A stretch of DNA of 64,000 bases, taken from positions 13,945,618 through 14,009,617 of the forward strand of contig OZ022576.1 in assembly GCA_963669155.1 (NCBI GenBank). Direction: 5' to 3'. The stretch comes from Arbacia lixula. Lineage: Eukaryota > Echinodermata > Echinoidea > Arbacioida > Arbaciidae. The first letter of the stretch is position 1. Every line of letters starts with the position of its first letter. Under the pieces are notes generated by a model, which had not been told where the DNA came from, did no database searches, and was given only the letters and a program-made list of their open reading frames with translations. This document shows, in pieces, positions 7,315 through 53,544 of the stretch. The position numbers and the translations under genes are program-made.

Positions 7315-7490
7315 GGTATAACCAAAGATGCTAGCTCCATACATCCCTGGTATAACCAAAGACGCTAGCTCCATACATCCCTGGTATAACCAAATATGCT
7401 AGCTCCATACATCCCTGGTAGAACCAAAGATGCTAGCTCCATACATCCCTGGTATAACCAAAGATGCTAGCTCCGTGCTAGCTCCGTACA

Positions 7491-12246: not shown

Positions 12247-12545
12247 TGGTTGACCTAGTGGTAAAATGTGAAATAATGCATTCAATTGCTCCTGATCATT
12301 CGGCAATAGAGTTACGTCTTTTTGATAAACGTGAAACACAGATAAAAAATAAAGGCTCTTATTGGAAATTTAATAATAGTCTGTGCAATGACGCTGCTTA
12401 TGTTCAGCAAATGAAAGAAGAAATTTTGAATTTAAAAGGGGACTTACAAGTAGAGATTCAAGATAAAAGAGTCCTTTGGGACTTTTTGAAATTAAAAATT
12501 CGTCAATTTACGCAACGTTTTTCTAAGAAACTTGCTCAAAAATAG
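12246..12545 (+). pseudogene. C-terminal remnant of LINE endonuclease plus linker, frame-broken
   Basis: The frame contains APDHSAIELRLF, the end of an apurinic-type endonuclease fold whose SDH-like His is catalytic in the family, followed by GSYWKFNNSL and a charged linker. It ends at a TAG at 12543-12545, inside CTCAAAAATAGG. The reading continues in the next frame over the same bases, so one extra A in the A-run accounts for the break. An apparent ATG start at 12237 lies in the minisatellite and is not a real start. Confidence 0.85.
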
Positions 12546-31898: not shown

Positions 31899-31904
31899 TA
31901 TAAA
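31899..31904 (+). promoter_or_regulatory. TATA box of TSR gene 1
   Basis: TATAAAGG within GTAGGTATAAAGGCCATC, 288 bp upstream of the signal-peptide ATG. Gene 2 has the same TATAAAGG, which supports the call. Transcription would start near 31930. Confidence 0.5.
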
Positions 31905-32186
31905 GGCCATCACGATTGGGTAACGCGAGCCAGTGCGAGTAAGTATCTCTCTCCGAACGGACACCAATCGCTATTAACCTAAGGTTGCTCTCCATCCACG
32001 TGAATACTACCATCATATTTATTTACAACCAACAACATACCCAGGATAGTCAATCAATCAGACGGAGTCTACCTGATACGGTGTATATTCTACTTTCGAG
32101 TGAAGTTGTTGGGCCTTTTTCGGAACTCGTTATCTTCATTTTGACTCTTTATCTCGCTATCGACCAGGAATTCGAAGGAAATCATC

Positions 32187-32262
32187 ATGATCAGCAAGAT
32201 ATCGCACAGTGTGTCGGCATTGCTTCAGCTGTCTGTCATCCTATGTTTGGTGTACGTCTCAT
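32187..32262 (+). CDS. TSR gene 1 exon 1: signal peptide
   Basis: ATG in AATCATCATGATC opens 25 codons: MISKISHSVSALL, then a hydrophobic core LSVILCLVYVS. The exon ends at TCAT|GTGAGT, leaving one base (phase 1) that pairs with CG of exon 2 to give Ser before the first Cys. The length and hydrophobic core fit a cleavable signal peptide. Confidence 0.72.
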
Positions 32263-33602
32263 GTGAGTGACAATATATTATATGATATGATAACAAAACG
32301 TGATATTTGATATTTTTGAATGTTTCCATGGTGAGAGTGCAATATCAAATATTATTTTAAAAATAGTAACACATTTGCTAACACCATTTGGTTATATTCT
32401 TTCGTGATGTGTTACATCACATAACGTGATATGCTATATTATGCCACTATATCATCAATGATATTATTTATATAACATGTTTCAGTTCCCTCTGATTCTT
32501 GCTCATTGTTTCCATCTACATGTCATCGTGTTTCAGAAATGGAAATTCCAGATGCTCATTTAAAACAAGTGATATTGAAGACTTACGTTACAAAAAATAT
32601 CTAGTTCACGTTACAAAGTGTGATTGTTCTAATAAACATGTAAATAGATTCAATTTAAACGAATTATTTAAAGGATAGATTGAGATGATAGATATATGAA
32701 TAGATTGAAACATGAATGGATAAATGAATAAATAGACACTCTCACATTTGATCATAAGTTATTTGAAATTTGAGCAAACGTGTCAAACCCCAGTCGATAA
32801 CTCGATTTTTAATACTAGGGCCGCTTGTTTTGATTCTTGTTTTGATGTTCTCACGCAATCGTTTGACAGAATTAAGACAGTTAAATTTATATGTTTCCAA
32901 ATATATAATTTTTTGAAAGAGACACAACCAATTGGATACATTCAGTCTCAACTAACAGAAATCAAATTAGTTAGATGGTCAGTTGTGGTAAAAGAGGTAC
33001 CTTATATTTCCATGCATTGTTTTTAGAGAAAAGTAAAATATGACGGCATTTTACTGACCTTTCATATTTACTAAAGCATGTCAAATGTCCTTCCGCTTGA
33101 TGGCGGTTGTATACTTCAATCCACTCGGATTCGGGACTAATATACACTTTTACTAATAGTACAGCGAACATCGAGAGAACAAGGCATTCTTCTATACAGC
33201 TACACCCATTTGAATTAAGTAATGTAGGTTATTCCTCTGAATATAGTGTTTGGATGTGAAAAGTCTTAAACCAGAAAAATTGATACTTTCAGATGAAAAT
33301 CTGAAGCATGGACCCAACTATGAATAGAGACCATGGTGAAGTAAGCAGTTTCGCGACGTAATGTTTCCCTTTGAGAATGAGATGTGTTCTTGCTGTGATC
33401 TGATCTGTTTGAGGGCTTATGTTTCAGGGCTGAATCATCGAGTCAGCAAAACAAAGCAAAATAGTGCAAAACAACAATCATTCAAGTAGTACGTAGTCAA
33501 TCACAATGAGTACATGACAGACCACAATGACCGTGATGACGCAAACAATAAGTTCTTCTTTGTTAACAGGAAGTTTTCACTTCAGTTGCTATACTTGCCG
33601 AC

Positions 33603-33646
<44 letters not shown>

Positions 33647-35786
33647 GCTGGAGGGATATATCATAACTTAAATAGACGAGATACCATAGAGATATTCTGA
33701 CAAAAAAAATGATTTGCTCTTTTACAGAGTTCACTTTGCATTTTACCCAAAATTGCATTAAAATAAACATTAAATAACGGAAATAAAGGGAGGAAAATAC
33801 TTTATAGTATTGTGCGATATTGTGATCGTTGTGTCACCGTGGTTGTCATGGTTGTTTCGGTTCTGTTATCATGTTTATAGGTTGACAAAGATATGTATTG
33901 AATATTTGTTATTTTATTCAACGTACGTACCACTGACCATCGTATAGACTTAACTTATGCATGTTAAATAATGATAATTGAATAGCACGTATTACGTGCA
34001 TCAATAAATTGACGTGAAATGATGTGCTCTCCAACTTTTTTTTGGTGATTTATAAATCAATGAAATCGTATTATACCAATCAGATTAAAATGAAGTTTGA
34101 CGTAATATCTTGAGACAATACAGTCGTGTAATAGATACCATCATAACACTTGCGAAGTTTTATTCTTAATTTACGACATCACATGATCATTAATAAATAT
34201 CATCATATCATGTTACGGAGTTGTACGTTTACTTATAACATAACACGCACGGTGATAATCATTCACCATTTTGATGTTTCATGCAGTCGGCTGATCACAA
34301 GTACTTATCAATAATGGACCCTGTCAGCAAATCGACGCAGTGTGCTCAATCACTATGAGCCCCTGTGTATTTGTTCCCATTGTTGAGGTACTTATATATT
34401 GTGAACCTACCTTGTGTTTCCTTGCAGCGTGCAACCCTACTAGTTGGTGGTCCGAATGTTCGGTCACGTGTGGTGGCAGCGGAGTACAGACCAGGACCAC
34501 TTCAAACAACGTCGTCGTAACACGCACCTGTACGAGCTCCGACCCATGCCCAGGTTCGTGCTTCTTGGCATCTTCCATCGTTAGTTTAGAGTCTCGTCAA
34601 CAACCATATTGATCATCTTAAAGATGCATTTATTTACGTAGATATATCTATAAATATAACATATTTTAGACCAACTTAAAGGAATCGTACGTGGAGGCTT
34701 CCGAGCTAGTGGCGGTGATTTCGTTCTGATAATCATATCTTTCTACTAATCAAAAGGATGACATATCCTCCAACCACTACCACTATATGCACATTAGAGG
34801 ACCAAACAATCTTTGCTCTTGCACAATCTTGTTATCTTCGCACCTTTTTAATAGTTTATTTAAATCGTTGATCTAATTCCCAAATGAGTGAAATGATGGA
34901 CCGTTTGTGTGGTTATTTTTTTTTTGCTCCAAAGTTAACGGGGGCTGGACGGAATATGAACTCGCTAGTTGCACTGCCAAAACCTGTGCCGACGTCAATA
35001 CTATTATCTGGATGCGCTACTGTGAGAACCCAGCCCCTGCACACGGGGGCGAGAACTGCGGAGGGCCGTCCGTCTATATCGAATACAACACCCCATGCCC
35101 GACATGCGCTGGGTCTGGTAAGAATATGACACCCTTCTTATCCCCCTCCCTCCCCCCTCCCCCCTCCCCCCCCCCCACCCCCACCCCCACCACCATCTCT
35201 ACCAAAACAGAGGCGACGTAACCTCATCTTCCAGTTCATCATGTATTATACGATTATACTATGATGAAATATTAACCCCAAGGAGTAATATATTTGTAAT
35301 ATATATTCAATCCGCGCAAGAAAACTGGGAATATGAAGCCTCACATTATTTGATTATCCTACTCGACTTTAAACAAAACAATTGCTGGTAAGAAACTTCC
35401 ATCTCAACATATTCATGATAATTACTTTTTTCTAGGCTCGACGTTTCCCATCGAGTAGTAGCCTACCCCAATCCCGTTTTACCGCATTCATAGTATTTCA
35501 ATATATGCCCCTTCTTTATATTTGCGCTGATAATAAACACTGATCTTTTACGCGTAGTAACAATTAGTCCCCAGCGCATAACAAGTGAAATTCAAACGGC
35601 CTGTAATAGGAGTACCTCCACATTCCTGGCAACTTAGATGTGAAAATGGTTCCCACTTTCTCCCCGACAGCTGAATTCGCCACGCAAGCCCCTGTCGGCA
35701 TGGCTGAAGAAATGACGACAGAAACAGCGACCGAACTTATCGACGAGACGACTGAACTTATAGAAGACATAACGATCGACCTGTAG
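32187..35786 (+). CDS. TSR gene 1: secreted protein with two thrombospondin type-1 repeats (spliced, 4 exons)
   Basis: Joining 32187-32262, 34428-34553, 34935-35117 and 35671-35786 gives an open 167-codon frame (166 residues plus TAG). All junctions are GT-AG and all are phase 1. The protein has a signal peptide (about residues 1-25), TSR1 (about 30-67), TSR2 (about 70-124) and an acidic, Thr/Glu/Ile-rich tail (about 130-166). No membrane segment or GPI signal is seen, so it should be secreted. TSRs generally bind glycans, matrix or complement-type partners; the specific partner here is unknown. TSR1 has the typical WxxC start (WWSECSVTCGG). TSR2 is unusual because it lacks the tryptophan ladder, starting WTEYELASC. 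Gene 2 at 48 kb has the same architecture. Introns hold only simple sequence. Confidence 0.8.
33606..33645. repeat. (TG)n microsatellite in intron 1 of TSR gene 1
   Basis: About 20 TG units. Confidence 0.95.
34428..34553 (+). CDS. TSR gene 1 exon 2: first TSR
   Basis: Acceptor TTTCCTTGCAG, donor CCCAG|GTTCGT; 126 nt, phase 1 to 1. Encodes CNPTSWWSECSVTCGG, then a Thr/Val-rich strand and TRTCTSSDPCP. Six cysteines are present, as in a canonical TSR, in a shorter than usual domain. Confidence 0.85.
34935..35117 (+). CDS. TSR gene 1 exon 3: second, divergent TSR
   Basis: Acceptor with a T-run and GCTCCAAAG, donor TCTG|GTAAGA; 183 nt, phase 1 to 1. Encodes GGWTEYELASCTAKTC, then MRYCENPAPAHGGENCGG and TPCPTC. 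The CENPAPAHGGENCGG block is a strong TSR signature. The N-terminal WSxW is reduced to one Trp, so C-mannosylation there is doubtful. Confidence 0.87.
35671..35786 (+). CDS. TSR gene 1 exon 4: acidic C-terminal tail and stop
   Basis: Acceptor ACTTTCTCCCCGACAG; in phase 1 it reads AEFATQAPVGMAEEMTTETA and ends IEDITIDL-TAG. The tail is low-complexity and negatively charged, with many Thr that could carry O-glycans. Two more in-frame TAG codons follow at once. Confidence 0.75.
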
Positions 35787-37013
35787 TAGTAGAAGAAGAA
35801 ATAGATTGATGGAAGTCACGGGAGGAGCTTAGATAGACTGATAGCATTATGTATTCGCTCTGATTGTATTGTAGACGCAACATTACTGTGAATATATGTA
35901 AATATATGTATATATATATATATAAATATATATACCTGTGTATATCACATATGCTTATTCTTTATGAACGTGTTACTGCATTATGCTGCATGTTTCTCTT
36001 CGCTAAATGTTGTATCCCTTATACCATATTCCTCACGTTCGTCTCTCCATGACACTAACACCTTTTTATCGCAATTCTTTGTAAATACATATAGTGCATG
36101 TCCTAGTTCTACTAATCGAATCATGCTTTGTTTTCCTTCTATATATTATCATTGCAGTTTCCCCGCTTTTGAAAACCAACGGTCAAACGGTGTAATACAT
36201 AATGGAGGTATGTCCCCGTGCTGCTTGCTGCATGAGCTTAATACCGGGCTAAGATGGGAAGCAGAACAGAGGATCGAACATTAACCAATACATCAAACGA
36301 ACTGATTATATTCAATGTTATATAATTAGACATAGATCTGACCATCCCAACAAAAGTACCTTATTTGCATGGATAGTGGTTAATAGTACTTTAATTTGCA
36401 TAAATGGCGGGCAATAATACTTTTCTTGCATACATTTGCATAATGAGAAGTGACCAGCATGTGCTCGAGATTCAAAAACCCACATTCTTCAGTGCATTAC
36501 TGTGCCGGTTCGCAGAAAGAAGTGGCAACAAGCATTGTATGGCAAGATGTTTACATTGACGTCGCAATGTTTTTTGTTGTGTACCTTTCATGCCTTTGCA
36601 ATGCGAATTCAATGACAAATTATCATGAACGCCTTGAAAACACGCGATGAGCAATGCGCAATTCGCTTAACAAATACGTAACATCTAACATTAACGCGCG
36701 CTGTTGATTGATGAAGATAAGGTAGAGCCTGGAAAACTCATTTTTTATTGCTGTTGGTTCGTAATATCTCTGTTATTCAGTAGTATTTTATTTGGTATTT
36801 AAAATATATATTAACGTTCCTGCTCTGATATTCGGGAAATTGTTGAACTGTAGGCCCGCGATGATGCGGCCGAGTGATAATAGCATCGATTTGAGATCAC
36901 TTTATGCCAATAGTTTTAACCATGCCCCTAAGAGCAATCTATGTTTGTATAATATTCACTGCCTCTAGCATGTCTGATGCATTATTTGTAAATAGACGAT
37001 ATGTGTAAATAAA
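35787..37013 (+). other. probable 3' UTR of TSR gene 1
   Basis: AT-rich, with an AT microsatellite at 35905-35936. The first AATAAA I found after the stop is at 37008-37013, which would give a ~1.2 kb UTR. This is tentative. Confidence 0.3.
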
Positions 37014-39219
37014 CAGAATTTACTAGTATTATAATTCAATTTTACTGTTTACTACGTCACCAGTGCCATGCTCCTCAAATATCATATTACACGATCATAT
37101 ACTTTGACATAAACTTTGCCTGTATATTATGATGAAGTATGATTGAACAAGTTATGTTAATTCTTGGTTTCATAAGCATGAATTCAACGCAGCGGAACTA
37201 TTTGTCTGGTACAGGGCAGGTTAATATTTTTTGAGACAGATAAACCAATATCTTGATATTTGTGCGCTTTACTCTATTGCAAAGTGCATCAAGAAGTATA
37301 TATATTATAATTATAATACTCCGGGTTAATACTTGAATGTTAGCGTAAGAGTGTATCATTCTACTTGCATCATTCTAAATACAATAATTCGTTGTAGCCC
37401 TTGTAGCTAAATGACACAACGTGCACGCGAATGCTACTAACCATTGACGTTATCATGCCGTCAAGTTAATCACATGGCTTTTGTTGTAAAAAAAATATGT
37501 TTTGGTATAGTAGTGATTGTCATGATAGTATGTATTGTAAATGTTTCAACGATAGGAAGCATCATCGAGAGCAATTACTGTCTTTCAATGTGAATTCTAA
37601 AGCGTATATCAATTCATTAAATGCGAGTACCCATCAGTACGTTCATATGGACATTAAGTTCACATTCATTTTTCAATTCTCGACTATATTGAAGGTCGTT
37701 GAAGCCTGTAAGCCAAATTGTCATTTAACATAATCTTGTCTTGCTATGAGTCAGATAACTTTCCTCTTTTTTATCATATGTCGAGAGGTTTATTTTGCGA
37801 CCGAGGCACAACATGAGTTTCCGTTGGTTTGCTCAAGCCGCAGAAAATTCAAATAACAAATGAGTGATCTCCGTATTAGATCATGGACTCAACTACATGT
37901 TCCATGGTTAGAAGGATACTGTTTGGTCCATCATGAGGGAGATGAATGATATAAAACAAATATAACATGCACATTTTTCGAGCCACTGGTGAAATCATGG
38001 AGTCCTTGATGACATATGTTGTTATGTCCTTTGGGGTTGCGCCCCTCGGAAAAGAAATGCTGTTTGTTCCACCGCGGAATCCATCCTTTCAACCAAAGGT
38101 CTCAGTGCATGGTATATTCGCTTACTATATCCAATAGACATGGTATTTATGAATGTGTGTACATTGCATGTAAGGTTTCTGACTGAGTGTTATATCTATT
38201 ACTGTTATTGAATGTAATTCTTGATTTGATATTGCAATGCACGATGGTCATCGAGATATTATTTTTTCTTCGATATTTTGATAACTATGGTAATGATGGT
38301 AAGGATGACGTGCTCCATCCTGAAAATAATTAAAAAACAAGTCGATTTTCGTTTGAAATTAACTTTGTGTAAGCTCCGTTATAGCATTTACATCATTTAT
38401 GTGAGCACATGGTTCTAAAAGCTGGCGTAGACATGTTGTCCACAGATATATGAAAGAGTAACCATATGAAACTTTGACCTACAAATTGCCCTATTATGGT
38501 ACTTCATGTTTTGCAAATTTGGCAAATGTATTTTTGTTGTTAAAGAAGACGATGCTACGACACTGCCATAAAATAAGATCATTACAATTAGACTGCTATT
38601 CAATTTGACTTTGCAATTTTTTCAATGTTTTCAATAGTGAAATCAAAACCATTGTTTGTTATGAACAGTCGTTTGTGATCCCATTGTCTAAAAGAGTGTG
38701 AGTCCGATTAACATTAAAAGTAGAATTATTCGCAATAAGGGTCCCCCACCCCCTCCCTGCTAGAGTCATCCACGATTCGAGCGCTATCATTAGTTCCAAT
38801 AAGTATATTATAAAAAAACAATATTTTGAATTAATATTGTAACATATTTCACTCACTCTTGTATGTTAATGCCTATAATGACATCAATTTCCTTTGTCGT
38901 ACTATTTTACTTTGCCTGTAATTGAATAATAGTCTAATGGATAAAACGAAAAAATGGATATGATATCTCTTTGCTGTTGGTCACTGTTGTTATTATCATA
39001 AATGATTCCGCGGCAAAATCTAAATGTTTTGGGCCTTTGTTTTAAATTTTATCTGATAAATCAATAAATTATGATTATTTAAAGAAAATTTTTTACTTGT
39101 TTTCGTGTTATTCAATGCCTTTTCTTTGCATCGTTAGATATTATAACGTATTCAGAACGGAACGCACACTTATAATGCTAAATTAAGCAGGAATCCGAAA
39201 TGGCGCGATCGCACTATAG
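37014..39219. other. intergenic, nothing recognised
   Basis: AT-rich, no frame with domain-like content and no clear element ends. Confidence 0.5.
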
Positions 39220-39275
39220 CGTTAAAGGGCTTATTGATGCCAGCGTATAAGGGCTTATTAATGTCAGCGTATATG
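39220..39275. repeat. ~29-bp tandem duplication
   Basis: AAGGGCTTATTGATGCCAGC is followed by AAGGGCTTATTAATGTCAGC, each then GTATA. Confidence 0.8.
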
Positions 39276-39804
39276 ATTCTAAAAAGTCTAGAAACGCTCA
39301 AATTATCTGGTTGGTGCACTGTTCACGCACGTTGCAAAAACATCAACAACAAGAACAACCTCCGGGCACACGTTCACTCTAAAAGCTAGAGTGTAACAGA
39401 GCCATTTCATATAAGAATCTACACGACGCAATAACATAAAGCAAACGTGAACAATCCAGAACACCGTCTCTCCCATTAACAACTATGCGACATACAGTAT
39501 AGCCTCGTAGATGATGTACAAAGACTTTATTTTTAGCTTTGGCAGGAGTCAAAATAACACTAAAAGTTGGTCAACGGAAGAACTTCTCGTGACTTCGTGT
39601 TGATGAACTTGGCAAAATCTGGCCTCCTTTGATCAAGGTGATGTCATCGCATCTCCCCCACTCCGTGTAGGCCGTGTGTTTTACTGAGCATAAACAGTTG
39701 TTTGTTTGTATATGGCAGTGGAGACAAAATGGTGTGATTTTGGGGTGGTGCTGGAAGTGGGGGGGGGGGGGGGTATACGCGGAAGCGTGTATAATGTATA
39801 AATA
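39276..39804. other. intergenic; G-run near 39759-39772
   Basis: Nothing coding recognised. Confidence 0.5.
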
Positions 39805-39893
39805 TGTGTGTGTGTGTTTGTGTGTTTGTGTGTGTGTGTGTGTGTGTGTTTGTTTGTGTGTGTGTGTGTGTATGTGTGTGTATGTGTGGTGCG
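39805..39893. repeat. (TG)n imperfect microsatellite
   Basis: TG repeats with TTTG and TATG interruptions. Confidence 0.95.
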
Positions 39894-40107
39894 TATTTGT
39901 GTATATTTGAGAGTGTATAAAAAAACAACTATGTTTAGAGTAGATGTGTACTATGTGACACTTTAAAAATAATAATAATAACAAAGTTACAACTAATTCA
40001 AGCTAACATTTAAACATCATAACGTGAAAGGATGTCACATTTGGGAGAAGGATTTGTGATATTTCATCAATTGGGCCTACTATTATTAATTTTCACTTTT
40101 TGAGAAG

Positions 40108-40275
40108 TCGGGACCAAAACAAGTTGTGTGTATCAATTGATTAATTCAAAACAAAGCAATGCCCATAGTGCATCACGTATGTCAATCCACAAGGTATATT
40201 CTGCCAGAAGCATCATGAATTATTAATGTAACTTTGAGGGTCAGCTGCTAGTGTCTGTTAACACCGACGATATTT
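40108..40275. repeat. dispersed palindromic repeat family D, copy 1
   Basis: Shares ATTAATTCAAAACAAAGCAATG and TTCTGCCAGAAGCATCATGA with 54632-54822. The ends are less well conserved than in that copy. Confidence 0.55.
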
Positions 40276-40375
40276 CGTATATCTTTTTATGATATATGCA
40301 TAGTCCCTCCCTCCCGCACTCTTTCTTACATCAGGTCTTCTTGGGCTGTTGTACTAATAAAAAACAGGGAAATTT

Positions 40376-40710
40376 CTTTAAAGGTAGCCCGTCCCTTTTG
40401 CAAACTTAATTCTGAAAGTTCCCTGACTTTGTCATCACATGAGAAAGAGTGGCTATATAACCTTTCCCTGGAATCGACAAAGTGTAATATTCGGTTTTGA
40501 GGAAATAATCTTCGATAATTGATCGAGCTTTTTTTATTCGTACCACAAAAATAGTCAAATCTCAGCGAAAACTAGTTAGATTTTTATTCATTCTGCGGGA
40601 GTTATAGTACCTCTGACCTTAAAATTTCAGTTGGTATCCCAAAGATACGCGCTGTGCAAACTTTCATGAAGTTTGCAGATGTTTGTGAAAGGGACGGGGC
40701 ATCTTTAAGG
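40376..40710. mobile_element. MITE family E
   Basis: Left CTTTAAAGGTAGCCCGTCCC then TTTTGCAAAC; right GTTTGTGAAAGGGACGGGGC then ATCTTTAAGG. These are inverted repeats of about 30 bp around a 335-bp non-coding body. Confidence 0.65.
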
Positions 40711-41479
40711 ATTCATGCGCCATTAATGCATGTTTGCACAAGTAGCACACGCAAATCCCATAGAGCAGCATTTTGGCTGGCGGATGTCGGGTTAAAGAAT
40801 GCTTTTCTTGACAAAGTCACAAATTGCTTTTGCCTCATAAAATCCCCGCAGGTATTTTGGCTGCAGGACAGAGTGGTTTGCTGAGCATGCAGGTACTTTA
40901 GCCTACGAACGCACTTATTTCATATGAAGGTAACTAATTAACCACCACATTCCCTGATATAATTGCCGGAAGTATGATAAGTGCTGTGTCATTGATGTTG
41001 TGGCTAATCATTTCCGAATTTGGATCGACTATTCTTTCGATTTAAAAGTCCTCATTGTTAAATGAAACAAAGCTACCAATATTTACATCATTCACAAGAG
41101 CTTATATTTCTCAAACCGTCATTAAAAAAAAAGACATATTCATCTTTGGTAGCAGTGTGTTGATATAACGGTGTTTGAAGATAACAAACGTTACTAATAT
41201 TCGAAACAAAATAAAGAAAATACAGAGACAGGACACCCATCAACCGAAACCGTATGGATATTTACTTTCCCTGATGCAGGTTATTTTTAGTTCTTGTGTC
41301 CTTTTAACCTTTGTCCGCCAGCGTTTGAATGACTAATAATGTAGGTTGCAGTAATGTATACAATATATTATACCGTTGACATGTTCTCACAGAGACCTTG
41401 CCCTAAGCACTAATTCTACTCTATTCGTTCCTGATCCTGTAATAAGTCTAAGCCCATCCACTGTTAACCCCATAAGTCC
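40711..41479. other. intergenic, nothing recognised
   Basis: No gene or element ends seen. Confidence 0.5.
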
Positions 41480-41603
41480 CATACGTCTCTGCAACTGGCT
41501 GAATCGCGGGACCCGGTCATTGGATTTGAAGAAGAAGGTGACGTCACATTTCAAGTAGAGGCCCTTACGACTGGAGAACCGTGGATAAATCGTGTCGAAT
41601 GCG
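41480..41603 (-). repeat. short MITE-like repeat family F, reverse copy
   Basis: Reverse complement of the element at 52235-52373. Shared blocks are CTCTGCAACTGGCTGAATCG, GGTGACGTCAC, AGGCCCTTACGACT and ATCGTGTCGAATGCG. Confidence 0.6.
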
Positions 41604-41939
41604 ATGGTCTCCATTCATCCACTCGGGCAGTCATAACTTTCGTTTCAATATCTAAAGCCGTACCAAAAGTATATCACGCGATAATGCACGCATCAATCAA
41701 CTCCTCTGCATGATAATTTCGTCTTGCTTAATCTGCAACCTGAGGTCGACATTTCTAATCTCCGTTCTATTATCTTGGCTTAAAATTACCGGAAGCATAC
41801 CGGAACCTTTACCGGAAGTGCATCATGGAATCGATTAAAACGGGGAAGATTTTTTTTAGGAGAAGATTGTTATCAATTTATTGGTTCCGCCGTAGGTTCC
41901 GCTGTGGGAAATAACTTTGATGTTCACACTGATGTCTGC

Positions 41940-41940
<1 letters not shown>
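41604..41940. other. intergenic
   Basis: A triple ACCGGAA motif (about 41790-41817) is the only pattern seen. Confidence 0.4.
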
Positions 41941-41989
<49 letters not shown>

Positions 41990-42149
41990 GTGTGTATGCG
42001 TGTGTTGGTGTGTATGTGTGCGTGTCCGTGTGTTAGTGTGTGTGTGTGTGTGTGTGATGTGTGTTTGTGTGCGTGTGTGTATGTGTGTGCGTGCGTGTGT
42101 GTGCGTGTGTTGGTGTGTATGTGTGTGTGTATGTGTGTGCGCGCGTGCT
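41941..42149. repeat. (TG)n imperfect microsatellite, 210 bp
   Basis: TG repeats with CG, TA and TTGG interruptions, ending GCGCGCG. Confidence 0.95.
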
Positions 42150-43010
42150 CTTTTTCTTTCCCTCTGTAATCGATATTCTGTTCGTGAACTACATGCTCTA
42201 AAAAAAGTAAATTATGAGTGAATGTGAATATGTTAAGACCGAATTATGAAATAAACAACCTAAGAAAAATTCAGCGAACTGTTGAAATCAAATCAAATCA
42301 AATATCAAACAAACTCCTTCCCTGCCGAACACACTGCTGATCTAGTTAACTCGTATGTATAATTTGAGGAAAGTATGACAGTGGAAATGCACAAATTTTC
42401 CACTAAAAGTATTTCAAGTAATATGATTTATACATGTTGCAGATACAATATCCTTGGCACTGTTAGTAGCAAAGAAGAAGACAATAGGAAACACCTAGGT
42501 TATTTTTATCCCAATTTTTGTGAATCTAATGAAGTCAAATAAATTTACTTCTCCTGAAGAAGATAATTTAAAAAAAATGAAGTTCACACGAATTCAAGAA
42601 TTCAAGAATTCAGAATCCGAATATTCAGTTCATTCTCAGTTCAAGTTGAGCAATTCAATCAGATAATATACGTTAGCGGTTCACAACATCCATCCTTCGA
42701 TCACTTATCTTCTAGGTTCCGAAGAAAACAGTCATTTCGAAAGTAAAATCATTAAATCTCCTGGATTTAGACAACAATTTTGAAGGACAAACCACCAGAA
42801 AACTGTTAATTTCAATAAAAAAAGAAGCAGAAAGATAAGAGAACACGATTCGCGAAAGTTTTCACATAATCGGATAATTCAAATCAAGTTGATTATTGAA
42901 ACATGTCATCGCTTATCCCAACGACCATCACAGGTAAACTTAAGTTTGCCCCTCACATATTCCTTACTTACAGTGAATCCTGCTTCAGTGACTACATGTA
43001 AAGAGCTCAT
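42150..43010. other. intergenic
   Basis: Short AATTCAAG repeats near 42588-42610; nothing else recognised. Confidence 0.45.
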
Positions 43011-43409
43011 TTGCAAAACGGGTTAGATCCATTTTTCATTAAATGTGATTTTTTTTTTGTTTTTGTCTCAATGTATAGATTTGAGGTAGCTCTATAAGAT
43101 AACACCAAAGGAAAGTGGAAATTCCCATTAAAAAGTGAAAAAATGGCAAAGAAAAATCTTTTTTTTTTTTCAAAGGGGTTAGATCCATTTCAGTTTGTTT
43201 GCAAAAGGGGTTAGATCCGCAAAGGTAATTTTTGGAAAAAATATTTTAAAGATATGAAGACAGATAGATTTCTTTTATACCCAATTTTATGTACATATGA
43301 TGATACTTTATTATGACAATTTAGTTTCGCATAAGAATATGGCAATATGGGAGAATAAAAAAAAAAAAATCTCAGAATGGTCGAAAGTGGATCTAACCCC
43401 TTTTGCAAA
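43011..43409. mobile_element. MITE family G
   Basis: Left TTGCAAAACGGGTTAGATCC and right GGATCTAACCCCTTTTGCAAA are inverted repeats. Two more direct GGGGTTAGATCC copies occur inside, near 43177 and 43207. Non-coding body of about 400 bp. Confidence 0.7.
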
Positions 43410-43703
43410 CAAAGTCTTCATGTATAAAAAGACCACTTACCTATAAAGAAACTTAAAAGATGTCTCTCATCGAAACTTGAAACAGTATGTAAAGACAAAC
43501 TATGCATAAAGATCACGTTTGTGTCTCCTTTGAGCTATCTTTACAATACATGTGTCACTGTTAATGTAAGACCGCAGGGCTCGCAATTAAATTTATGAGA
43601 ATCAAAGAGAGAAACTCTCTGGAAACCTCCAGCTATTCCACTGAGTTCTCTGATATTATAGAAATCTCTACTTAAAGCTCGATGTGTTGTTTACATCACA
43701 CTA
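43410..43703. other. intergenic, nothing recognised
   Basis: No signal seen. Confidence 0.4.
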
Positions 43704-44209
43704 TACAGAGTGAGTCAGAGAAAATGTCCCACTTTTGTAAAGTTGCCCCTTTTTAAAATATGAATATATCTTGATAGAGGTATCCTCCAAGTACATTCAG
43801 GTACCATTTTTATTTGATCCCGTGCAGGCATGACTGAACATCGGACAATCTTTAGAAGACTGTCAGATCTCACTTGCGCCAAGTTACTGGGTGATGAATA
43901 AAACAGTGCTTTAGACAAGACTGGCATGCACACACACACACACACACACACATACACACACACACATGCACACAATCCTGGCAGACCCACTCAAACATGC
44001 ACACACAAGCACACGCACACACGATGAAGATAAAGATCAAGATCAAGATGATGACAATGAGGAGGAGGATGATGATAATTTTTATGCTGGTGGTAGTGAA
44101 TGTGTTTTAAGGCATGTAAGGGGAAAGATTGTGGGGAGTTGCCACTTAAACATTCAGCGATCTTGCTAAAAATCAATGCTAAATTATGAACCAGTTATTA
44201 CCATGTGTG

Positions 44210-44246
<37 letters not shown>

Positions 44247-44509
44247 CATGCCAGTCTGTCTGTCTGACTGTCTTTGTCTAAAGCACTGTTTTATTCATCA
44301 CCCAGTAACTTGGCGCAAGTGAGATCTGACAGTCTTCTAAAGATTGTCCGATGTTCAGTCATGCGTGCACGGGATCAAATAAAAATGGTACCTGAATGTA
44401 CTTGGCGGATACCTCTATCAAGACATATCATGAAACTAATGATTAAATATTCATATTTTAAACAATTCAACTTTACAAAAGTGGGACATTTTTTCTGACT
44501 CACTCTGTA
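43704..44509. mobile_element. fold-back element with ~230-bp arms, Tc1/mariner-like ends
   Basis: The arms 43704-43930 and 44246-44509 are inverted copies. The left starts TACAGAGTGAGTCAGAGAAA and the right ends TTTTCTGACTCACTCTGTA. Long arms, TA at both ends and AGTGAGTCAGA termini resemble Tc1/mariner-type non-autonomous elements. The arms enclose (CA)n at 43929-43966 and (TG)n at 44205-44243, plus unrelated filler. The similar open frames at 43715-43990 (minus) and 44274-44498 (plus) are the same arm read from each side, not genes. Confidence 0.8.
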
Positions 44510-45156
44510 GACGGGAAGTAGGAAAGCGAGGAACATCCGAACACAAAAAAATGTTTGTTTTTTTGTTTGAAATATAAAGACTGTTCTTTTAAGTTGTTCT
44601 GTTACCTTTTTTACGTGGGAGGTTTGATGATCCCTTCTCATGGGTGGTTTAGAAAGTATGAGATTTGAGTCATTTCGGGATGTGACCACGTTTTTAGACC
44701 TCAAACATCTCACGTATTTAAACATAAAATTCTGTACACAAACAGATTATGTTTTTATCCTCGCTCAAGTTGAAGAAAGAACATGAACGTGCCTTCAAGG
44801 TTGTGTTAAAGAAAGTGAAACTCCACTCTCTCTGTTAGATGTCGTTCATTGGCCCTAGTTATAATCGATGGATATGTATTAAATGTGTTGATTCAACATC
44901 TAAGCAAGATCACAGAGACAGACAGATCAGAGTTTATCTGTTACTATTGCAACTATGAAACAACTCTCCGGTGCTATCCATGACGATTATTCTATACCTA
45001 TTTGATTTACTCTAATTCCGTCTTCAAGCAAATCCTTGAATCTACCCATTAAGATTCCATAAACTTAACTTAATGTCTGTACCTTAATCATTATCGTACA
45101 AAATAAACTCTCATCCTACAGAGATATTTAGCCCCTGAATATAAGTGCCCACTTGT
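44510..45156. other. intergenic, nothing recognised
   Basis: No gene signal. Confidence 0.5.
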
Positions 45157-45294
45157 GAGCGTAGTGAGGGTAGACCAAATGTGAGTAGACCAAATAAAAG
45201 CATATAAAGTGGGTTTGGACCAGATGAGAGTAGATAAAGTGAGTGTTGACCAAATTAGAAGAGACCAAATAAGAGTAGACTAAATGACAACATC
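45157..45294. repeat. degenerate ~16-18-bp tandem repeat
   Basis: Recurrent GAGTAGACCAAAT(A/G) variants, about eight units. Confidence 0.7.
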
Positions 45295-46856
45295 AGGGCC
45301 AGGCATGCTTCCAACCTCAATCTACTTATCCCCCCTCTCCCCTCTCCGACTCAACCACTGTTGCTTCATTGGCAAGATTGAGAATATGAGTTCAACGAAT
45401 TTGAATTGAAATTAATTGAATTTGTCTTCATTTTACATCAAATAAAGTAATAAACAATAAAGAAGTGGTAGTTACAAGTTTGTGCAATGACACACGTGTT
45501 GAATATGGATAGTAATTAACCAAAATAATGAAATAAATGAACACAATTATAAATCATATAGATGTACTTACCTTTCGTGCATTGAAACAATTCAAATGTG
45601 TTTAGGGGGGTATAAGAAATCGAGAATTGCGGGGGTAGTACCTGTTGTACAAAATATCAAGTAATCTCTGTTTCGTGAAGCTACGAATATACAGTAATTC
45701 CCAATGCATATTGAGTGAGAAAAGGTGTTGCGAAACAAAATAAAAGCGATATAGTGAAATGTAAAGGTGCATCATATGAAGGACGCTTTATGATGTGTGG
45801 GATGAGGGGGGGGGGGTCTGCAAAAGTAAAACCACACAAGTGGAAATGCAATTCAAAATGGTTACAGAGATAGCGAGGAAAATCCACTTGGCGGAAATCC
45901 ACAAAGTCCTTTCCCAACCCAGCACAAAATGTCCACTCGACTAGCGAAAGTCCGTTCAACTCGGGCGTTGGGAATGCCTTCACTCGAATATTAGGCGTGA
46001 TCCTATCACAAAACATGTATCCACTTCTTGGCGTGTGTTTTAAAATAAATGAAAAGTATAAACTCGCAGTTTGCTGTTTACCGTTCTAATGATCACAAAC
46101 CATTATTTTCGTGGGAAAAGGGACCGAGGTCATTTGCGTCAAGTGGAATGTGCGTCAATAAACCGTCAACCGGAAGAAAACGTACAATTGATAAAAAGCG
46201 CTAAACATAGGTATGTTTTATAGATCACTGATCTAATGGTTTTTGCAGCTAACCTGAGGTATCTTAGTAATAACTTCAATTGTGATGACAATACGGCGTG
46301 TGATGATGTGTCCCACGGGACACGAGGAGGTGGAACCTTTTATTATGATGAAATATACATACATCTTGATAACTGATTTTGTGTAATATAGAAGATATTA
46401 TATATATATCAATATAAATTTCTTGTTTGTCTTTTTGTATCAAGGTCACCGGAGACGACACGATCTTATCAGCCGTACGACTTTGAGACTGGCTAAACAC
46501 GATGGTAAAACTAATCGATGAAAGGTCTTTCCCACTGGTATATCATTGCCTTCATTCATCATACAGACAAGTTCGAAAGTGTAACAAAAAGGGAGTCGGC
46601 GAAGAAGAAAGAGAAGAACATTAACCGTTTTGCTCTGTTTTGTTGTGATCTGTCCTACATGGCGGGTCGCGCGCTAGCTGAGTGTATACAGACGTTGAAA
46701 TGGTATTCATGAAATCATAATCGTGTTCAGCCCAACGTTGGAAGGTACAGCATTGTAATGTTTATTTCTCCTACAATTCCTAATGCCATGGCCCATGGCC
46801 ACAGCCGATCATGCGCCTCCCTGCGTCTACTCTACGTCAGATTTCGCAGAAAACCA
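45295..46856. other. intergenic, nothing recognised
   Basis: A 111-codon minus frame (45681-46016) has no recognisable motif and no splice or promoter context. G-run near 45807. Confidence 0.45.
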
Positions 46857-47228
46857 TTGCGTCAGACGCAGGCAGATGCACGTTTTCCAGGCACACAAGA
46901 GTTAGCACATAGGGGGTGCAGAAGGTTATTTGAAATGTCCAATAAATTGCGTTTGGCTTTTTTTTTTTTTTTTTTTTGCACATTTCAAGGAGGAGCGCGG
47001 AGGTACAGGTTCATCTTGCGGTGTCTGCAAGGTTTTGCAAGGTTTAGGATTGGAACCGAACACAAGTACAAACCTGTGGTAGTGGCACGTTCACCGCACA
47101 TCCGCGGTGCGATGAACGTGCGATTTGTGTACAAGTGTCCGCAAACCCCGCCGTCTTCTTGCCTGCAAGGTGGCCGTACTTTTGCTCCAGCCATGTTTAA
47201 AATGCAGTTTGCCCACACCTGACGCAAT
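46857..47228. mobile_element. putative MITE family H (ATTGCGTCAG ends)
   Basis: Starts ATTGCGTCAGACGCAGGCAG and ends CTGCAGTTTGCCCACACCTGACGCAAT on the inverse reading, so the terminal ~25 bp are inverted repeats. An inner hairpin CACGTTCACCGCAC...GTGCGATGAACGTG lies near 47086-47121, and a T-run at 46960-46977. The 154-codon frame over it (from 46758) is not a credible gene. Confidence 0.5.
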
Positions 47229-48162
47229 TAAGTTGTGGACACGCATGTGCAAAAACACGTTTAGCGGGTTGTGACCAAGGCTTTGAATGTTATTTATAGA
47301 GAAATTTTCACGACTCTAACATTGCTGGCGCCATACCAGTGTCTCTGCATCCAACATTGATTTCCATTTCACAGCCAACTACAAGATTCCTCTCCCACAG
47401 GATTTCGCAATTTAAATCCAGAAGGTTGTTCATTATTTCTGCGTCATATAGTGAATTCGAACACATATGGTGCATAAAGAGTTGATATATTTTTTTACAC
47501 AAAAATCCATTTTGTACAAACTATGTCGATGATTGTTTTACAAGTTTGTTGACTTAAAACACACTTAATCTGTATAAAATTGATATATACTCTTTTAAAT
47601 TTCCAAAAGCTTTTTCATCACTTTATGAACTTTATGGTTATTGAGTTTTGCATAATCGATTTTTTAATATTGTACCATATCTGCAACGATTGTACTTATA
47701 CATCATCGATGAAATGTATACCAATAAAAACTATGATGGTGAAAGAAACAAAAGTTTGCAAAACATTAAAACATTACCATGAAAATAGAAAAGGTAAATT
47801 AAGAAGAGGGGGGGAAAGGAGAAAGACAAGGTGAGAAAAAGAAGAAGATTGAGAAGAAAACTGTTGTAGAGGAGCTGTGATTTCATATATAAATATATAT
47901 ACACGTTGCAATGACTGAGAAAACAATAATTATTAAATTGGACGTACGAAACCTATGATGGCGCGTCTTGTTTCCGTCTGTCCACTAACGGACATTCCCA
48001 CTGTCGTGTCACTTTCACGGAAGGGAAACCCCCTGTTGACATGTTATACCATTGTGATCAGCATGGACCCCAGAGTATGTAGAATTACGCACCTCGCCTC
48101 GATCCCGGATTCTCTCTCCCAAAGGGAACATACCACTTCGCCACGTGAGTGACAGAAGACAC
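47229..48162. other. region upstream of TSR gene 2
   Basis: No exon recognised. The last ~200 bp before the TATA box are less AT-rich and may include promoter elements. Confidence 0.4.
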
Positions 48163-48168
48163 TATAAA
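48163..48168 (+). promoter_or_regulatory. TATA box of TSR gene 2
   Basis: TATAAAGG in GACACTATAAAGGACGCAG, 125 bp before the ATG, so transcription would start near 48195 with a ~95-nt leader. Confidence 0.6.
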
Positions 48169-48287
48169 GGACGCAGTAGTTAGGTTGGCCAGCAGTGATT
48201 TGTAATATCCAGCGTCAGTTTATTGGCACCGTCTCGTGAGTCGATACCTTTCTCTTTGAGGCACTGTTTCGAGGAACTACTAGTGAT

Positions 48288-48342
48288 ATGGAGCTTCATC
48301 GTGGGACATTTCTCTTTGCAGCTCTGTTTCTGCTCGCTGCGG
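48288..48342 (+). CDS. TSR gene 2 exon 1: signal peptide
   Basis: ATG GAG opens MELHRGTFLFAALFLLAA and ends GCGG|GTAAGT in phase 1. The hydrophobic core and length fit a signal peptide, with cleavage likely soon after the junction (ECLGSA). Confidence 0.83.
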
Positions 48343-48602
48343 GTAAGTTATAGAGATACTTGAATGTAACAACAGATGATATAGAGGAGAGGAGGAGGAG
48401 GAGGAGGAGGAGAAGGAGGAGGAGGAGGAAAAGGAGGATATCAATGATAATGATGATGATGGTTTGTATGTAGTGCTCTCAGAGCATAATGTATAAAGAC
48501 GCTCGATCATGAATTCATAGATAAAGAACAAAATAGAGACTCAAGAGAAAGAATGGGGGTGCGTGATGGCGGAGGCATAGGCATAGCAGAGAAAACAGAA
48601 CA

Positions 48603-48665
<63 letters not shown>

Positions 48666-50762
48666 GGGTAGGAGGTGTTTTGTGTTGGGAGGGAGAGAGA
48701 AAGAGAGAGAGATACAGATACAGATTAATAATTGAATTTGATCAGCGATTATTCATAGATTGTTTAAAGAAAGTGAGGAGACGTATAAGATTTAGTTTGC
48801 AAATGAAATACAATTATTTAAATTGGTAAATTATATACAATGTACATATAGATCAACTAGAATACTTTAGCCTTATTGTGACAGACTGGACTAACAGATT
48901 AACTAACAAATAATTATAGGTTTGAAATTATCAAATTGATAAATTGGGGGATCTACGAGGGTTTGTATATACTGTAGATTGTGCAGAAAATCCAGAGACT
49001 TATAACATTCAGTTTGAAATTTAAAAAAGACCCAAATCATAGGCAAATCACAAGAGATAACAACAACAAAATGTTGACATTGTTGTAGTAGACTGTAATA
49101 ATGCGCTGGTAGTTTTATTGACAAAAAATAGTTGGAATGAATACTTAATTGATCATATCAGTCATGCAAAATGTTACTTTCCACTCATGTACATGTTTTG
49201 TCCTGACACTTTCTAGCTTCCTTGCCATTGCATCTCCTATGATACACATGTGTGTCATATACTGTAGGAGACGCAATGGCAACGATCACACTGTGATCAT
49301 AGAGGTCTTGCTGTGTCTATGTCTCATCATTGCACGACTAGTATATGTACACGCACAGCACTCAAAGCTTGTCAACCTTCATGAAAAAGGAATTTGACTG
49401 CGAATCAAAAACAAATGCAATATAAAACAGGGGATAGTTACAATTTAATAAAGTGCTGACAGTCAGAGACACAGACTGACAAAAGATATGAAATATCACA
49501 AGGGAGTTGGGAATTTTTGGAAAATCATAGTAACTAGTGCTGAATTCTGATCATCCAACTTCCAGGGTAACTGCTTTGGTAGGCAATGACGTATAAGTTT
49601 AATTGTTTTTATGTAAGATGCGTAAACAAGGCCCAATTGCCTTGATTTACCATGGACTCTACTTTGTATGAAGGTTCCATGGATTTACAGAGCAAGCTGA
49701 CAGTGCTAGGGATTGAGATTTTTTTCAAACTGTTGCCGATCTATTTTCTCTGATTTGTCTGCTGTCGCTAAATTCAAGTAGTTATGATTTCATTTAACTT
49801 CGGCAAGACATTAAGAGGATAATCATAAAATGCGCACTTATGCAGAAGGCCCGAACATAAAGGAAAGTGTTGTCATACTCTCATTCAAAGATTGCCAAGT
49901 TGAGATATTCCCTGACGCAACAATGGCAGCTGTATGGTGAGAGTTGACCAGGTGGAAAACAAACGTAGGAAGTCAAATGTTTTGATAAAGACCTCAGAGA
50001 CGGATGTTCGGCTGTGATTCCTTTAAGGGGAGCTGAAGTGGTAAATCCCTTTAGACTCTGTTTGTTTCTTTTTCTTCTATAGACCCTACGTCACGGATTT
50101 ATTTTTTTCAACGGAGAGGATTCGGTTTTGAGTAGATAGGCATATTTCTTACGGAAGCTACATAAGCTCCAGGCTCTCCTTTTTTCCCCCAAGAAGGGAT
50201 AAATAACATAGAAAATATCTGTACACAAAAAGTTTAAATCTTTATTGATTTTCTGATGAGCTTTTTTGGATTATAATTCTAACCAAATGTAAAATGTTTT
50301 GCTGGATCAGTACTAGGCATATGTGTATATGAATTACCGTGTTTGTACAAAAATTAATATCATTTTGTGATTGAGTCTTTTATATCTACTGACATTCTAC
50401 TGACATACATGCCTAGGCCAACATGGGGTCACGTGATACCCCAAACTTACGTCCATTACGTCACTTCTCTTTACTCTTGAGTTTAAAATTGTTGAATATC
50501 GCTCTTCTTTGCACAACAACGCTTCGATGTTTGTTTAGTTTACGCTATTCTTCTTTGATGAAAAAAAAGTAAACTCTTGCAATTGACAGCGCTGCATTAG
50601 GAAAGTTGAAATACATATATTGTACATACAAACACATGCACACAAACACACATACATACATACATACACACACATACATACATACACACACAGAAACACA
50701 CATACATACACACTCACAAACACATATACATACATACACACACATACGTACACACACCAACA

Positions 50763-50806
<44 letters not shown>

Positions 50807-53371
50807 TACACACACATAATTATTATAATTATAATTTTTATACAGGCTAAATCTCTAGGGCGTTTGTACTTCTTTATCTTAAAAAAATAATAATATTAAG
50901 CATATATCCGACTTTCTTCTGCAGAGTGTCTTGGATCAGCGATCCCAGTCAGCGAGGGTGAAGGTCTCCACTGGGGAGCATGGAGTCAGTGCAGTAAGAT
51001 GTGTGGTGGCGGCCAACAGGAGCGACGTATGATCTGTGACGAGGGACTCGATCCCGAGACCTGCGTGTACCGGAAGAGTAGGCTCCCCCGTCGCGGCTTG
51101 CGGCAAACTCTGCCGTGTAATACACAGGACTGCGAAGGTAGGATCAAGTGTTATATCAGGTTGGATTTCAGAAGCTCCTCAGAATTCTTCTCCTTCAATA
51201 AATGTTCCCATTATGCATTCTTATATGCCTTAAAACGCAAAATATGAACACTTTAGAGGAGGGAAAACCGTAAGAATGGGAAGAAGAAAATAAATCGGAG
51301 GAGGAGAAGCAAGAGGAGGAGGTAGTAGGAAGAAATGGGAAACAGCTTCAACGCGCTCTCCAAACATTCATGCTCTCTCCTTAATTAAGTACACAATATA
51401 AACTCTTTTGTTGATTACCTACTTGAGTAGTTTTATATTTATGTTGATTATGAACTTAAATGTGTTCATTATTTAATTTGTTACGTTTAAAATTATTATA
51501 AAGTGTATAGAGATTATTAATATTATTCGCTATACAAATGTTTGATTATTATTGTTGTTATATGAAAACGACGAAAAGTAAAATGGTCAAGGAGAAATTT
51601 GTTTAAAGAAATATGAAAGGACGAAATGTCGTGAGTTTCTTTACCGGCTGGCAAAACAACATTAATGTTAGTTCAATTCCATTCAAACTTTGAAAAGGAT
51701 GTGTTGTATCCAGAGTTACCTCAACTGGACTAAAACAAAAAATATGGACATTACTACAGTTGAATTAAAGCTTATGTTATAAAGTATTTGTTACTCCCAC
51801 CCCCTCCCTTTTCTCTTTCCAGTCACAGGGACGTGGAGTGCGTGGGGCGAGTGGCAGCCTTGCTCATCGACCTGCGGCGAAGACAGCTTTCAGCTGCGAT
51901 TCCGCCGGTGCGAAGGCGACAATGAAACCGGTGACGTCCAGCCGAACTGCGACGGACAAGCCTTCGAATGGGCAGCGTGCGAGGGAGTGCCCCCTTGCCC
52001 TAACCAGCAGGAGGAGGTCGAAGATACCATACACCCAACCAATATCGCTCAAGGTCAGCAAGCGACAATTCATTTTAGAAGCCAAATATTGATTTCGACG
52101 AATTTTACGGATATCAAAATAAGTGTTCCTGATAACCGTGCTTACCTTGATTTATTACAAGTTCCGACAAACATTAATTAACTGTATATCGCGCTGAATC
52201 ATGTGCATACTGCCTAAAGACGAGTGAAGGTCAACGCAGGCGACACGATTTTGCTGCGGTTATGCAGTCGTAAGGGCCTGCGACAGGAAGTGTGACGTCA
52301 CCTTCTTGCACAAATCACATAACTGGGTCCTACGATTTAGCCAGTCGCAGAGATCGGATCGTGTCGTCTGCGGTGGCCGTAAGATTTTGTTAAGAACAAG
52401 AACATCGAAAATAAGAACACAAATGGCGACAACTTTATACCATTGTGAATATGATGGTAAGTTACCCCAACATACATGCACACATAATCCACACGCAGTT
52501 TCAGGGGGGGGGGGTGATTATTTGTACAACAGCATGGTCACCATTTTCATCGTTTTCGATTAATCATCATTCTACGCACCTCCCTCTTCTCTGCAGAATC
52601 CTACAATTCGTTCTTCAGTTTCGAGGAGAGCGAGGAACAGGTAAGACTTCTCATAGTCATCTGCATACTACTAAACCGAGTACCTCCATATGAGTTATAG
52701 AATATTTTTGGTAAAGATCGCATCCATTGCACTTTATTTCCCATTTTCTCCTGTACTGAAGGTCCCGAACAATCAACAGCACCAGTGGTATTACAATGCC
52801 GTGTCACATTTCAATTGCGTACAAAAATGTTTGACAGCAAAACCTACACAAAAACCAACAGTACACCTGAGATATCCACTCGCTATGTGGCACTCTCCCC
52901 GCCAAATGTGCATACACTGTATAACAAGTCAATGTGCTTCTCTTGGCTTGGCACCGAGTCAGTTAAGCAAATGTTAATAATGGCTATTACCATATTATTC
53001 TGATTTTTATTGCTGTATGTCACTGAATTAATGATTTTGGTGATTAGTTCTAAATCACTAATTTTCGGTTCAGTTGTTTAAGTATCCTCTGTATGTTCAC
53101 CCAATATACTTAAGATATTTTAACAATTACCGGGCTCGTTTGATCTTATTTTCAATTTGATTCTCTACCCACCCTAATCGCATTTTGGCTGATATCATCT
53201 GGTAATTTGTAATGCCACTGAATTTCGCTTGGATAACATACTCCGGGAAAAGAGTTCTTTGAAGCCCGTCCCTACCATGCCTACTTACATAACCTCTGCT
53301 ATGTTCGAATAATTCCCTCTCGCATAGCTTAAATAAAGTTACAAATATATTCCCTGTAGCATTTCACATTT

Positions 53372-53439
<68 letters not shown>

Positions 53440-53544
53440 AACTCTCTCTCTCTCTCTCTCTCCATTTCATTTCGGAAGAAATAAATGTCACCTTGCATAC
53501 TCTCATTGCAGGACTTCTCTTCATCCCTATCAAGTTCCTGGTAG
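48288..53544 (+). CDS. TSR gene 2: secreted protein with two thrombospondin type-1 repeats (spliced, at least 4 exons)
   Basis: Exons 48288-48342, 50925-51137, 51823-52053 and 52597-52640 join in frame with GT-AG sites for 181 codons. A final exon at 53512-53544 is tentative. The protein has a signal peptide (about 1-19), TSR1 (about 33-89), TSR2 (about 90-150) and an acidic Glu/Ser tail. WGAW and WSAWGEW give the WxxW C-mannosylation pattern; NET in TSR2 is an N-glycosylation sequon. No membrane anchor is seen, so it is probably secreted. It shares with gene 1 the signal-exon phase, one TSR per phase 1-1 exon, and an acidic tail. The partner and function are unknown. Intron 3 contains the small MITE at 52235-52373. 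Confidence 0.8.
48379..48430. repeat. (GGA)n simple repeat in intron 1
   Basis: GGA/GAA trinucleotide units. Confidence 0.9.
48606..48716. repeat. (GA)n microsatellite in intron 1
   Basis: GA repeats with GGG interruptions. Confidence 0.95.
50630..50817. repeat. (CA)n/(CATA)n microsatellite in intron 1
   Basis: CA repeats with frequent TA steps, ending about 110 bp before exon 2. Confidence 0.95.
50925..51137 (+). CDS. TSR gene 2 exon 2: first TSR
   Basis: Acceptor CTTTCTTCTGCAG, donor GAAG|GTAGGA; 213 nt, phase 1 to 1. Encodes HWGAWSQCSKMCGGG, a Cys-containing arginine-rich middle and LPCNTQDC. In CSKMC the usual Ser/Thr of the O-fucose site is replaced by Met, so that modification is unlikely in this domain. 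Confidence 0.9.
51823..52053 (+). CDS. TSR gene 2 exon 3: second TSR
   Basis: Acceptor TTTTCTCTTTCCAG, donor CAAG|GTCAGC; 231 nt, phase 1 to 1. Encodes GTWSAWGEWQPCSSTCGE, FRRCEGDNETGDVQPNC and GVPPCPNQ, then an acidic linker EEVEDTIHPTN. Base composition is clearly more GC-rich than the flanks. Confidence 0.9.
52235..52373 (+). mobile_element. short MITE-like element family F in intron 3
   Basis: CGCAGGCGACACGAT and ATCGTGTCGTCTGCG are terminal inverted repeats around a 139-bp body holding GTGACGTCAC. A reverse-oriented relative is at 41480-41603. Confidence 0.65.
52597..52640 (+). CDS. TSR gene 2 exon 4: acidic tail
   Basis: Acceptor CCCTCTTCTCTGCAG, donor GAACAG|GTAAGA. Enters in phase 1, leaves in phase 0 and encodes ESYNSFFSFEESEEQ. 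Short, but both splice sites are strong and the acidic composition matches the tail of gene 1. Confidence 0.68.
52762..52977 (+). CDS. alternative exon 5 of TSR gene 2 (uncertain)
   Basis: A pyrimidine-rich acceptor CTCCTGTACTGAAG precedes a phase-0 frame of 71 codons ending in TAA, with several Cys (FNCVQKC, MCIHC). A second frame over the same DNA is equally open, and neither resembles a known domain. It may be intron or repeat sequence. Confidence 0.2.
   Translation, partial: VPNNQQHQWYYNAVSHFNCVQKCLTAKPTQKPTVHLRYPLAMWHSPRQMCIHCITSQCASLGLAPSQLSKC
53374..53462. repeat. (CA)n then (CT)n microsatellite
   Basis: About 30 CA units, AACAAA, then CT units, just upstream of the candidate last exon. 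Confidence 0.95.
53512..53544 (+). CDS. candidate last exon of TSR gene 2
   Basis: Acceptor ACTCTCATTGCAG in phase 0 gives DFSSSLSSSW and TAG. AATAAA signals follow at 53698-53703 and 53754-53759, so this fits a 3' exon. A third possible acceptor (TGCCTTTTTCAG, exon from 55249) would give AKQSPV and TAA. Confidence 0.4.
   Translation, partial: DFSSSLSSSW

What the first reader, a model, noticed from the sequence alone, without database searches (positions are those of the whole stretch)
31899..53544. Pair of compact secreted two-TSR genes with a common exon plan
Two same-strand genes about 12 kb apart each have TATAAAGG, a signal-peptide exon ending in phase 1, one TSR per phase 1-1 exon and a short acidic tail. 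Two TSRs with nothing else make an unusually small TSR protein; most family members carry other domains. Sequence between the two is diverged, so the pair is old, yet the plan is kept. A strong TATA box and small secreted product suggest inducible or tissue-restricted expression. A role in defence, matrix or biomineral biology is speculation.
Basis: partly seen in the sequence, partly recalled or inferred. Interest (0 to 1): 0.75.

Follow-up and report, generated by a model that had tools for sequence, protein, structure and literature searches.

The report
Two small secreted TSR-repeat genes
Two small genes for secreted proteins made of two thrombospondin-type repeats really appear to be there, but their shared layout is the usual one for this repeat and they do not clearly look like copies of each other, so the find is mostly ordinary.

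Summary
Gene A (32187-35786, 166 aa) and gene B (48288-53544, 191 aa) are plus-strand models with GT-AG introns, a phase-1 signal-peptide exon, two phase 1-1 TSR exons, an acidic tail and TATAAAGG upstream. B passes Pfam TSP_1 (52 bits). A does not (19.7 against 21.6): its second repeat has other support, its first is weak. A profile scan of 264 kb found no further TSR exon. No transcripts were available.

The exon plan is usual here: 17 of 19 scored TSR exons elsewhere in the genome are phase 1-1 by best-scoring splice sites. By raw score, A and B repeats are not each other's closest among 33 TSRs, and a genome search with B does not return A; but against shuffles A1's best partner of nine is B1. 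A third compact two-TSR candidate lies on C22.

Best reading: two ordinary, diverged, TSR-only secreted proteins that are neighbours, perhaps in a sea star. Function is inferred. Modest oddity: none of the four repeats has the strict O-fucosylation consensus, against 20 of 29 others.

The parts
31899..31906 (+). TATAAAGG, putative TATA box of gene A, 288 bases before the ATG
32187..32262 (+). Gene A exon 1: start codon and predicted signal peptide, ends in phase 1
34428..34553 (+). Gene A exon 2: short TSR-like A1 (five Cys counting the one at its start, lacks the C3-C4 pair), phase 1-1
34935..35117 (+). Gene A exon 3: TSR A2 with six Cys, WxxW motif absent, phase 1-1
35671..35786 (+). Gene A exon 4: acidic, Thr-rich tail and stop
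48163..48170 (+). TATAAAGG, putative TATA box of gene B, 125 bases before the ATG
48288..48342 (+). Gene B exon 1: start codon and predicted signal peptide, ends in phase 1
50925..51137 (+). Gene B exon 2: TSR B1, six Cys, WxxWxxC, phase 1-1
   Evidence: TSP_1, two stretches in the protein, 52 bits
51823..52053 (+). Gene B exon 3: TSR B2, WxxWxxWxxC, six Cys, phase 1-1, plus start of acidic tail
52597..52640 (+). Gene B exon 4: acidic tail, phase 1-0
53512..53544 (+). Gene B exon 5: Ser-rich end and stop (TAG); an earlier end by read-through of exon 4 is not excluded
   Evidence: AATAAA at 53698 and 53754

Best explanation
Genes A and B are two separate small genes for secreted proteins, each a signal peptide, two tandem TSRs and an acidic tail, in an animal genome that fits a sea star. 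They were most likely assembled from the common phase 1-1 TSR exon stock of that genome and diverged, rather than kept as a tandem pair. Mechanism: each protein enters the ER, the signal peptide is removed, the TSRs fold as three-stranded ladders held by disulfides (in B with tryptophan C-mannosylation), and the protein is released to bind matrix glycans or other extracellular proteins. The sequence layout is shown. Secretion, folding and binding are inferred from TSR biology.
For: Frame-keeping GT-AG models. TSP_1 for B. Properdin match for B and thrombospondin-1 match for A. The four exons are first to fourth of 2,264 ORFs and the only TSR exons the profiles find in 264 kb. Signal-peptide exons with TATAAAGG occur only at these two places in the window. 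Phase 1-1 is usual for TSR exons of this genome (17 of 19 scored). By raw score A and B repeats have no special affinity, and B's genome search does not return A. Genome size 607.0 Mb and contigs of 23.5-23.8 Mb fit Patiria miniata v3.0, 608 Mb with scaffold N50 23 Mb (PMC13317027, section 5 read).
Against: Against 200 shuffles B1 is A1's best partner of nine (z 7.8), which also fits a very old duplication. Two neighbours with the same tail style and the same TATAAAGG could be a diverged tandem pair. The rank test uses raw scores, A1 is short, and many of the 29 other TSRs were picked as strong Pfam matches, which favours them. The genome search with gene A did not complete. Gene A is below the Pfam cut-off, and A1's model matches nothing.
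Confidence: 0.65

Rival explanations
1. A and B are an old tandem duplication of one two-TSR gene; the repeats have diverged but the exon plan, promoter and tail style have been kept.
For: Same strand, 12 kb apart, same layout, TATAAAGG at both; against shuffles B1 is A1's best partner of nine (z 7.8); no other TSR exon found within 100 kb of the window.
Against: By raw score A1 ranks B1 15th, A2 ranks B2 18th, B1 ranks A1 26th and B2 ranks A2 last, of 32; genome search with B does not return A; no DNA similarity; the plan is generic.
Confidence: 0.25
2. One or both are exons of larger multi-domain genes, or decayed exons, so the compact proteins do not exist.
For: Gene A is below the Pfam cut-off, its A1 is short and it has no AATAAA within 1.2 kb; no transcript evidence.
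Against: All frames open, with signal-peptide exons, stops and TATAAAGG in place; no further TSR exon found in 264 kb; no Pfam domain over its cut-off in the plus-strand ORFs tested upstream of A and between A and B (21 of 42 and 25 of 58).
Confidence: 0.1

Closest known systems
Properdin
   Same: Tandem secreted TSRs; gene B's best solved-structure match (1w0r, whole-sequence E 1.1e-20)
   Different: Properdin is a longer multi-TSR complement protein (recalled); B has two TSRs and an acidic tail. The properdin-type C-terminal model TSP1_CFP_C is below cut-off (19.5 against 27 bits)
Thrombospondin-1 type 1 repeats
   Same: Gene A's best solved-structure match (7yyk, whole-sequence E 2.2e-6); the alignment shows a shared NPxPxxGGxxC stretch and a CPxNGGW link between repeats
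   Different: No other thrombospondin domain was met in the ORFs scanned near gene A (part of the ORFs); A2 lacks WxxW
Compact two-TSR candidate on C22 of the same genome (L030)
   Same: Hydrophobic leader, two TSRs, phase-1 intron between them, stop directly after the second TSR
   Different: No acidic tail; both its TSRs have the strict O-fucose consensus and its second has WxxWxxC

Membership tests
Thrombospondin type 1 repeat (TSP_1) proteins: gene B | Match to the family profile over its cut-off | tested here: met
   52 bits against 21.6, two stretches
Thrombospondin type 1 repeat (TSP_1) proteins: gene A | Match to the family profile over its cut-off | tested here: not met
   19.7 against 21.6 bits, A1 only. 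Other results point to TSR ancestry: thrombospondin-1 match E 2.2e-6, own profile ranks third and fourth of 2,264. Filed as TSR-like, not as a Pfam member
Thrombospondin type 1 repeat (TSP_1) proteins: genes A and B | Six-cysteine framework | tested here: inconclusive
   A2, B1 and B2 have six Cys each; A1 lacks the C3-C4 pair (counted by eye)
Thrombospondin type 1 repeat (TSP_1) proteins: genes A and B | WxxWxxC ladder motif (C-mannosylation site) | tested here: inconclusive
   B1 and B2 yes; A1 only WxxC, A2 none; 24 of 29 other TSRs of the genome have it
Thrombospondin type 1 repeat (TSP_1) proteins: genes A and B | O-fucosylation consensus (common, not universal) | tested here: inconclusive
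   Strict CxxS/TCxxG: 0 of 4 here, 20 of 29 others. Loose CxxS/TC: 2 of 4 here (A1, B2), 22 of 29 others
Thrombospondin type 1 repeat fold: gene A | TSR three-stranded fold in a model | tested here: inconclusive
Properdin family: gene B | Properdin-type C-terminal TSR model (TSP1_CFP_C) over its cut-off | tested here: not met
   19.5 against 27 bits
Tandem paralog pair A and B | Members closer to each other than to other TSRs of the genome | tested here: inconclusive
   Raw-score ranks 15, 18, 26 and 32 of 32 speak against, as does; A1's best z against shuffles is with B1

The most novel reading that the evidence does not exclude
A and B belong to a set of lineage-restricted compact TSR effectors that have dropped the strict O-fucose quality-control site and share a strong TATA promoter, so that they are made fast and in bulk, for example in coelomocytes or in adhesive or skeletal cells.
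Probability: 0.1. Interest if true: 0.45.

Novelty: new member of a known kind. Interest (0 to 1): 0.2.

Why it matters
It gives two gene models to check against annotation and transcripts, and shows with counts from one genome that a shared phase 1-1 plan should not be read as paralogy for TSR genes. If weak O-fucose sites in small TSR-only proteins hold across related species, they would be a natural test of how far TSR secretion depends on that modification.

Tried and rejected
Close paralogy of A and B: tested by pairwise scores against 200 shuffles (the printed label says 300), blastn of the two loci, raw-score ranks among 33 TSRs and a whole-genome search with B. Not the leading view, kept as a rival because A1's best z is with B1.

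Further TSR exons or a multi-domain gene: profiles on 264 kb, of which 2,500 bases read N, and Pfam on selected plus-strand ORFs of 20-31.4 kb and 36-48 kb (21 of 42 and 25 of 58). The one match there, ThrE at 14.4 against 26.3 bits, was taken as chance. Plus-strand ORFs elsewhere were not scanned with Pfam, except the LINE and genes A and B.

RNA families and tRNAs in the window: none reported.

Literature: searches listed nothing that I recognised as these genes; most listed papers were not opened, and only open-licence papers are held. Passages seen: PMC8001218, PMC10381214, PMC9338275, PMC5460417, PMC13317027 (and its section 5 read). PMC9759900 was searched for three terms and had none.

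A whole-genome search with gene A was asked and never answered, so relatives of A elsewhere in the genome are untested.

Full report
What is there. The window is C1:13945618-14009617 of a 607 Mb genome in 590 contigs. Size and contig lengths (23.5-23.8 Mb for C11, C13 and C14) fit the Patiria miniata v3.0 assembly, 608 Mb with scaffold N50 23 Mb (PMC13317027, section 5 read). The organism is inferred from this alone.

Gene models. Gene A encodes 166 aa: leader, TSR A1 (short), TSR A2, acidic Thr-rich tail. Gene B encodes 191 aa: leader, TSR B1, TSR B2, acidic tail and a small fifth exon. Introns are phase 1,1,1 in A and 1,1,1,0 in B. Exons are GC-richer than introns. An alternative end of B, reading through the 52640 donor, cannot be excluded: AATAAA occurs at 53332 and 53480 as well as at 53698 and 53754. 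Gene A has no AATAAA or ATTAAA within 1.2 kb of its stop, only variants.

Not part of something larger, as far as tested. In 264 kb the profiles find only these four TSR exons. Of the plus-strand ORFs of 45 aa or more upstream of A (20-31.4 kb) and between A and B (36-48 kb), 21 of 42 and 25 of 58 were scanned with Pfam, with no domain over its cut-off.

Not shown to be a pair. Of 19 TSR exons scored in eight other loci, 17 are phase 1-1 by the best splice sites of a simple home-made score, and the other two have a phase-1 site second. One weaker match (L005:2287-2613) fell under that script's threshold. Class 1-1 is also the rule for shuffled animal modules (PMC8001218, passages; the paper does not name thrombospondin). 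Among 33 TSRs of this genome (4 here, 29 from twelve loci), A1 ranks B1 15th, A2 ranks B2 18th, B1 ranks A1 26th and B2 ranks A2 32nd, each of 32, by raw score. That test has biases: A1 is short, and many of the other TSRs were chosen as strong Pfam matches. Against my reading: measured against 200 shuffles, A1's best partner of nine is B1 (z 7.8, next 7.2), while B1's z with A1 (7.3) is below its z with six of the other eight, and A2-B2 is only about 3. A genome search with B returned 39 places at E up to 1; three are its own exons, the best other is 39% identical at E 5.4e-6, and gene A is not among them (46 candidates of a loose first look were scored). The same search with A did not complete.

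How unusual. The genome has at least 91 TSP_1 places (150 of 200 candidates were scored). They fall into 43 same-strand clusters at 20 kb linking: 25 single, 7 double (one is gene B) and 11 larger. Of the 6 other double clusters I read 5 (L029-L032, L045). One, L030 on C22, looks like a compact two-TSR secreted gene. The others have further TSR exons or, by eye, other domains or long ORFs. Compact two-TSR genes are thus not unique to this window; how common they are was not counted.

Modification sites. None of the four repeats has the strict CxxS/TCxxG, against 20 of 29 others. With the looser CxxS/TC the counts are 2 of 4 and 22 of 29, so the oddity is modest. WxxWxxC is present in B1 and B2 and in 24 of 29 others, not in A. 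The C-mannosylation motif and its role in TSR stability are from PMC9338275 (passages), which also gives CxxS/TC; the final G of the strict consensus is recalled.

Mechanism. Shown: gene layout and repeat identity, weaker for A1. Inferred: secretion, disulfide-held TSR ladders (stronger in B) and extracellular binding. A defence, matrix or mineral role has no direct evidence here; the Patiria skeletal proteome lists a thrombospondin type-1 domain-containing 7A-like protein, not shown to be A or B (PMC5460417, passages).

Verdict. Observation confirmed at the sequence level; interpretation partly supported; new members of a known kind; low interest.

Noticed in passing
59207-62279 (-): Exons of a ubiquitin carboxyl-terminal hydrolase: UCH over cut-off in the ORFs at 61836-62279 and 60244-60465, below it at 59207-59425. 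It looks like USP19 by recall.
   Followed up: partly
12496-15354 (+): Retrotransposon ORF of 953 aa with reverse transcriptase and zf-RVT domains; a second RT-like fragment on the minus strand at 1545-1772 (by eye).
   Followed up: partly
2304-7474: A 5.2 kb minisatellite, 34-base unit, about 154 copies, 89% matches.
   Followed up: no
L030 (G000:C22:2629000-2635000, minus strand): Another compact two-TSR candidate, preceded by repeated ORFs at 157-base spacing and, by eye, a partial copy of its first exon.
   Followed up: partly
34428-34553: A1 has five Cys, one at the predicted mature N-terminus without an obvious partner; it could pair between molecules (inference).
   Followed up: no
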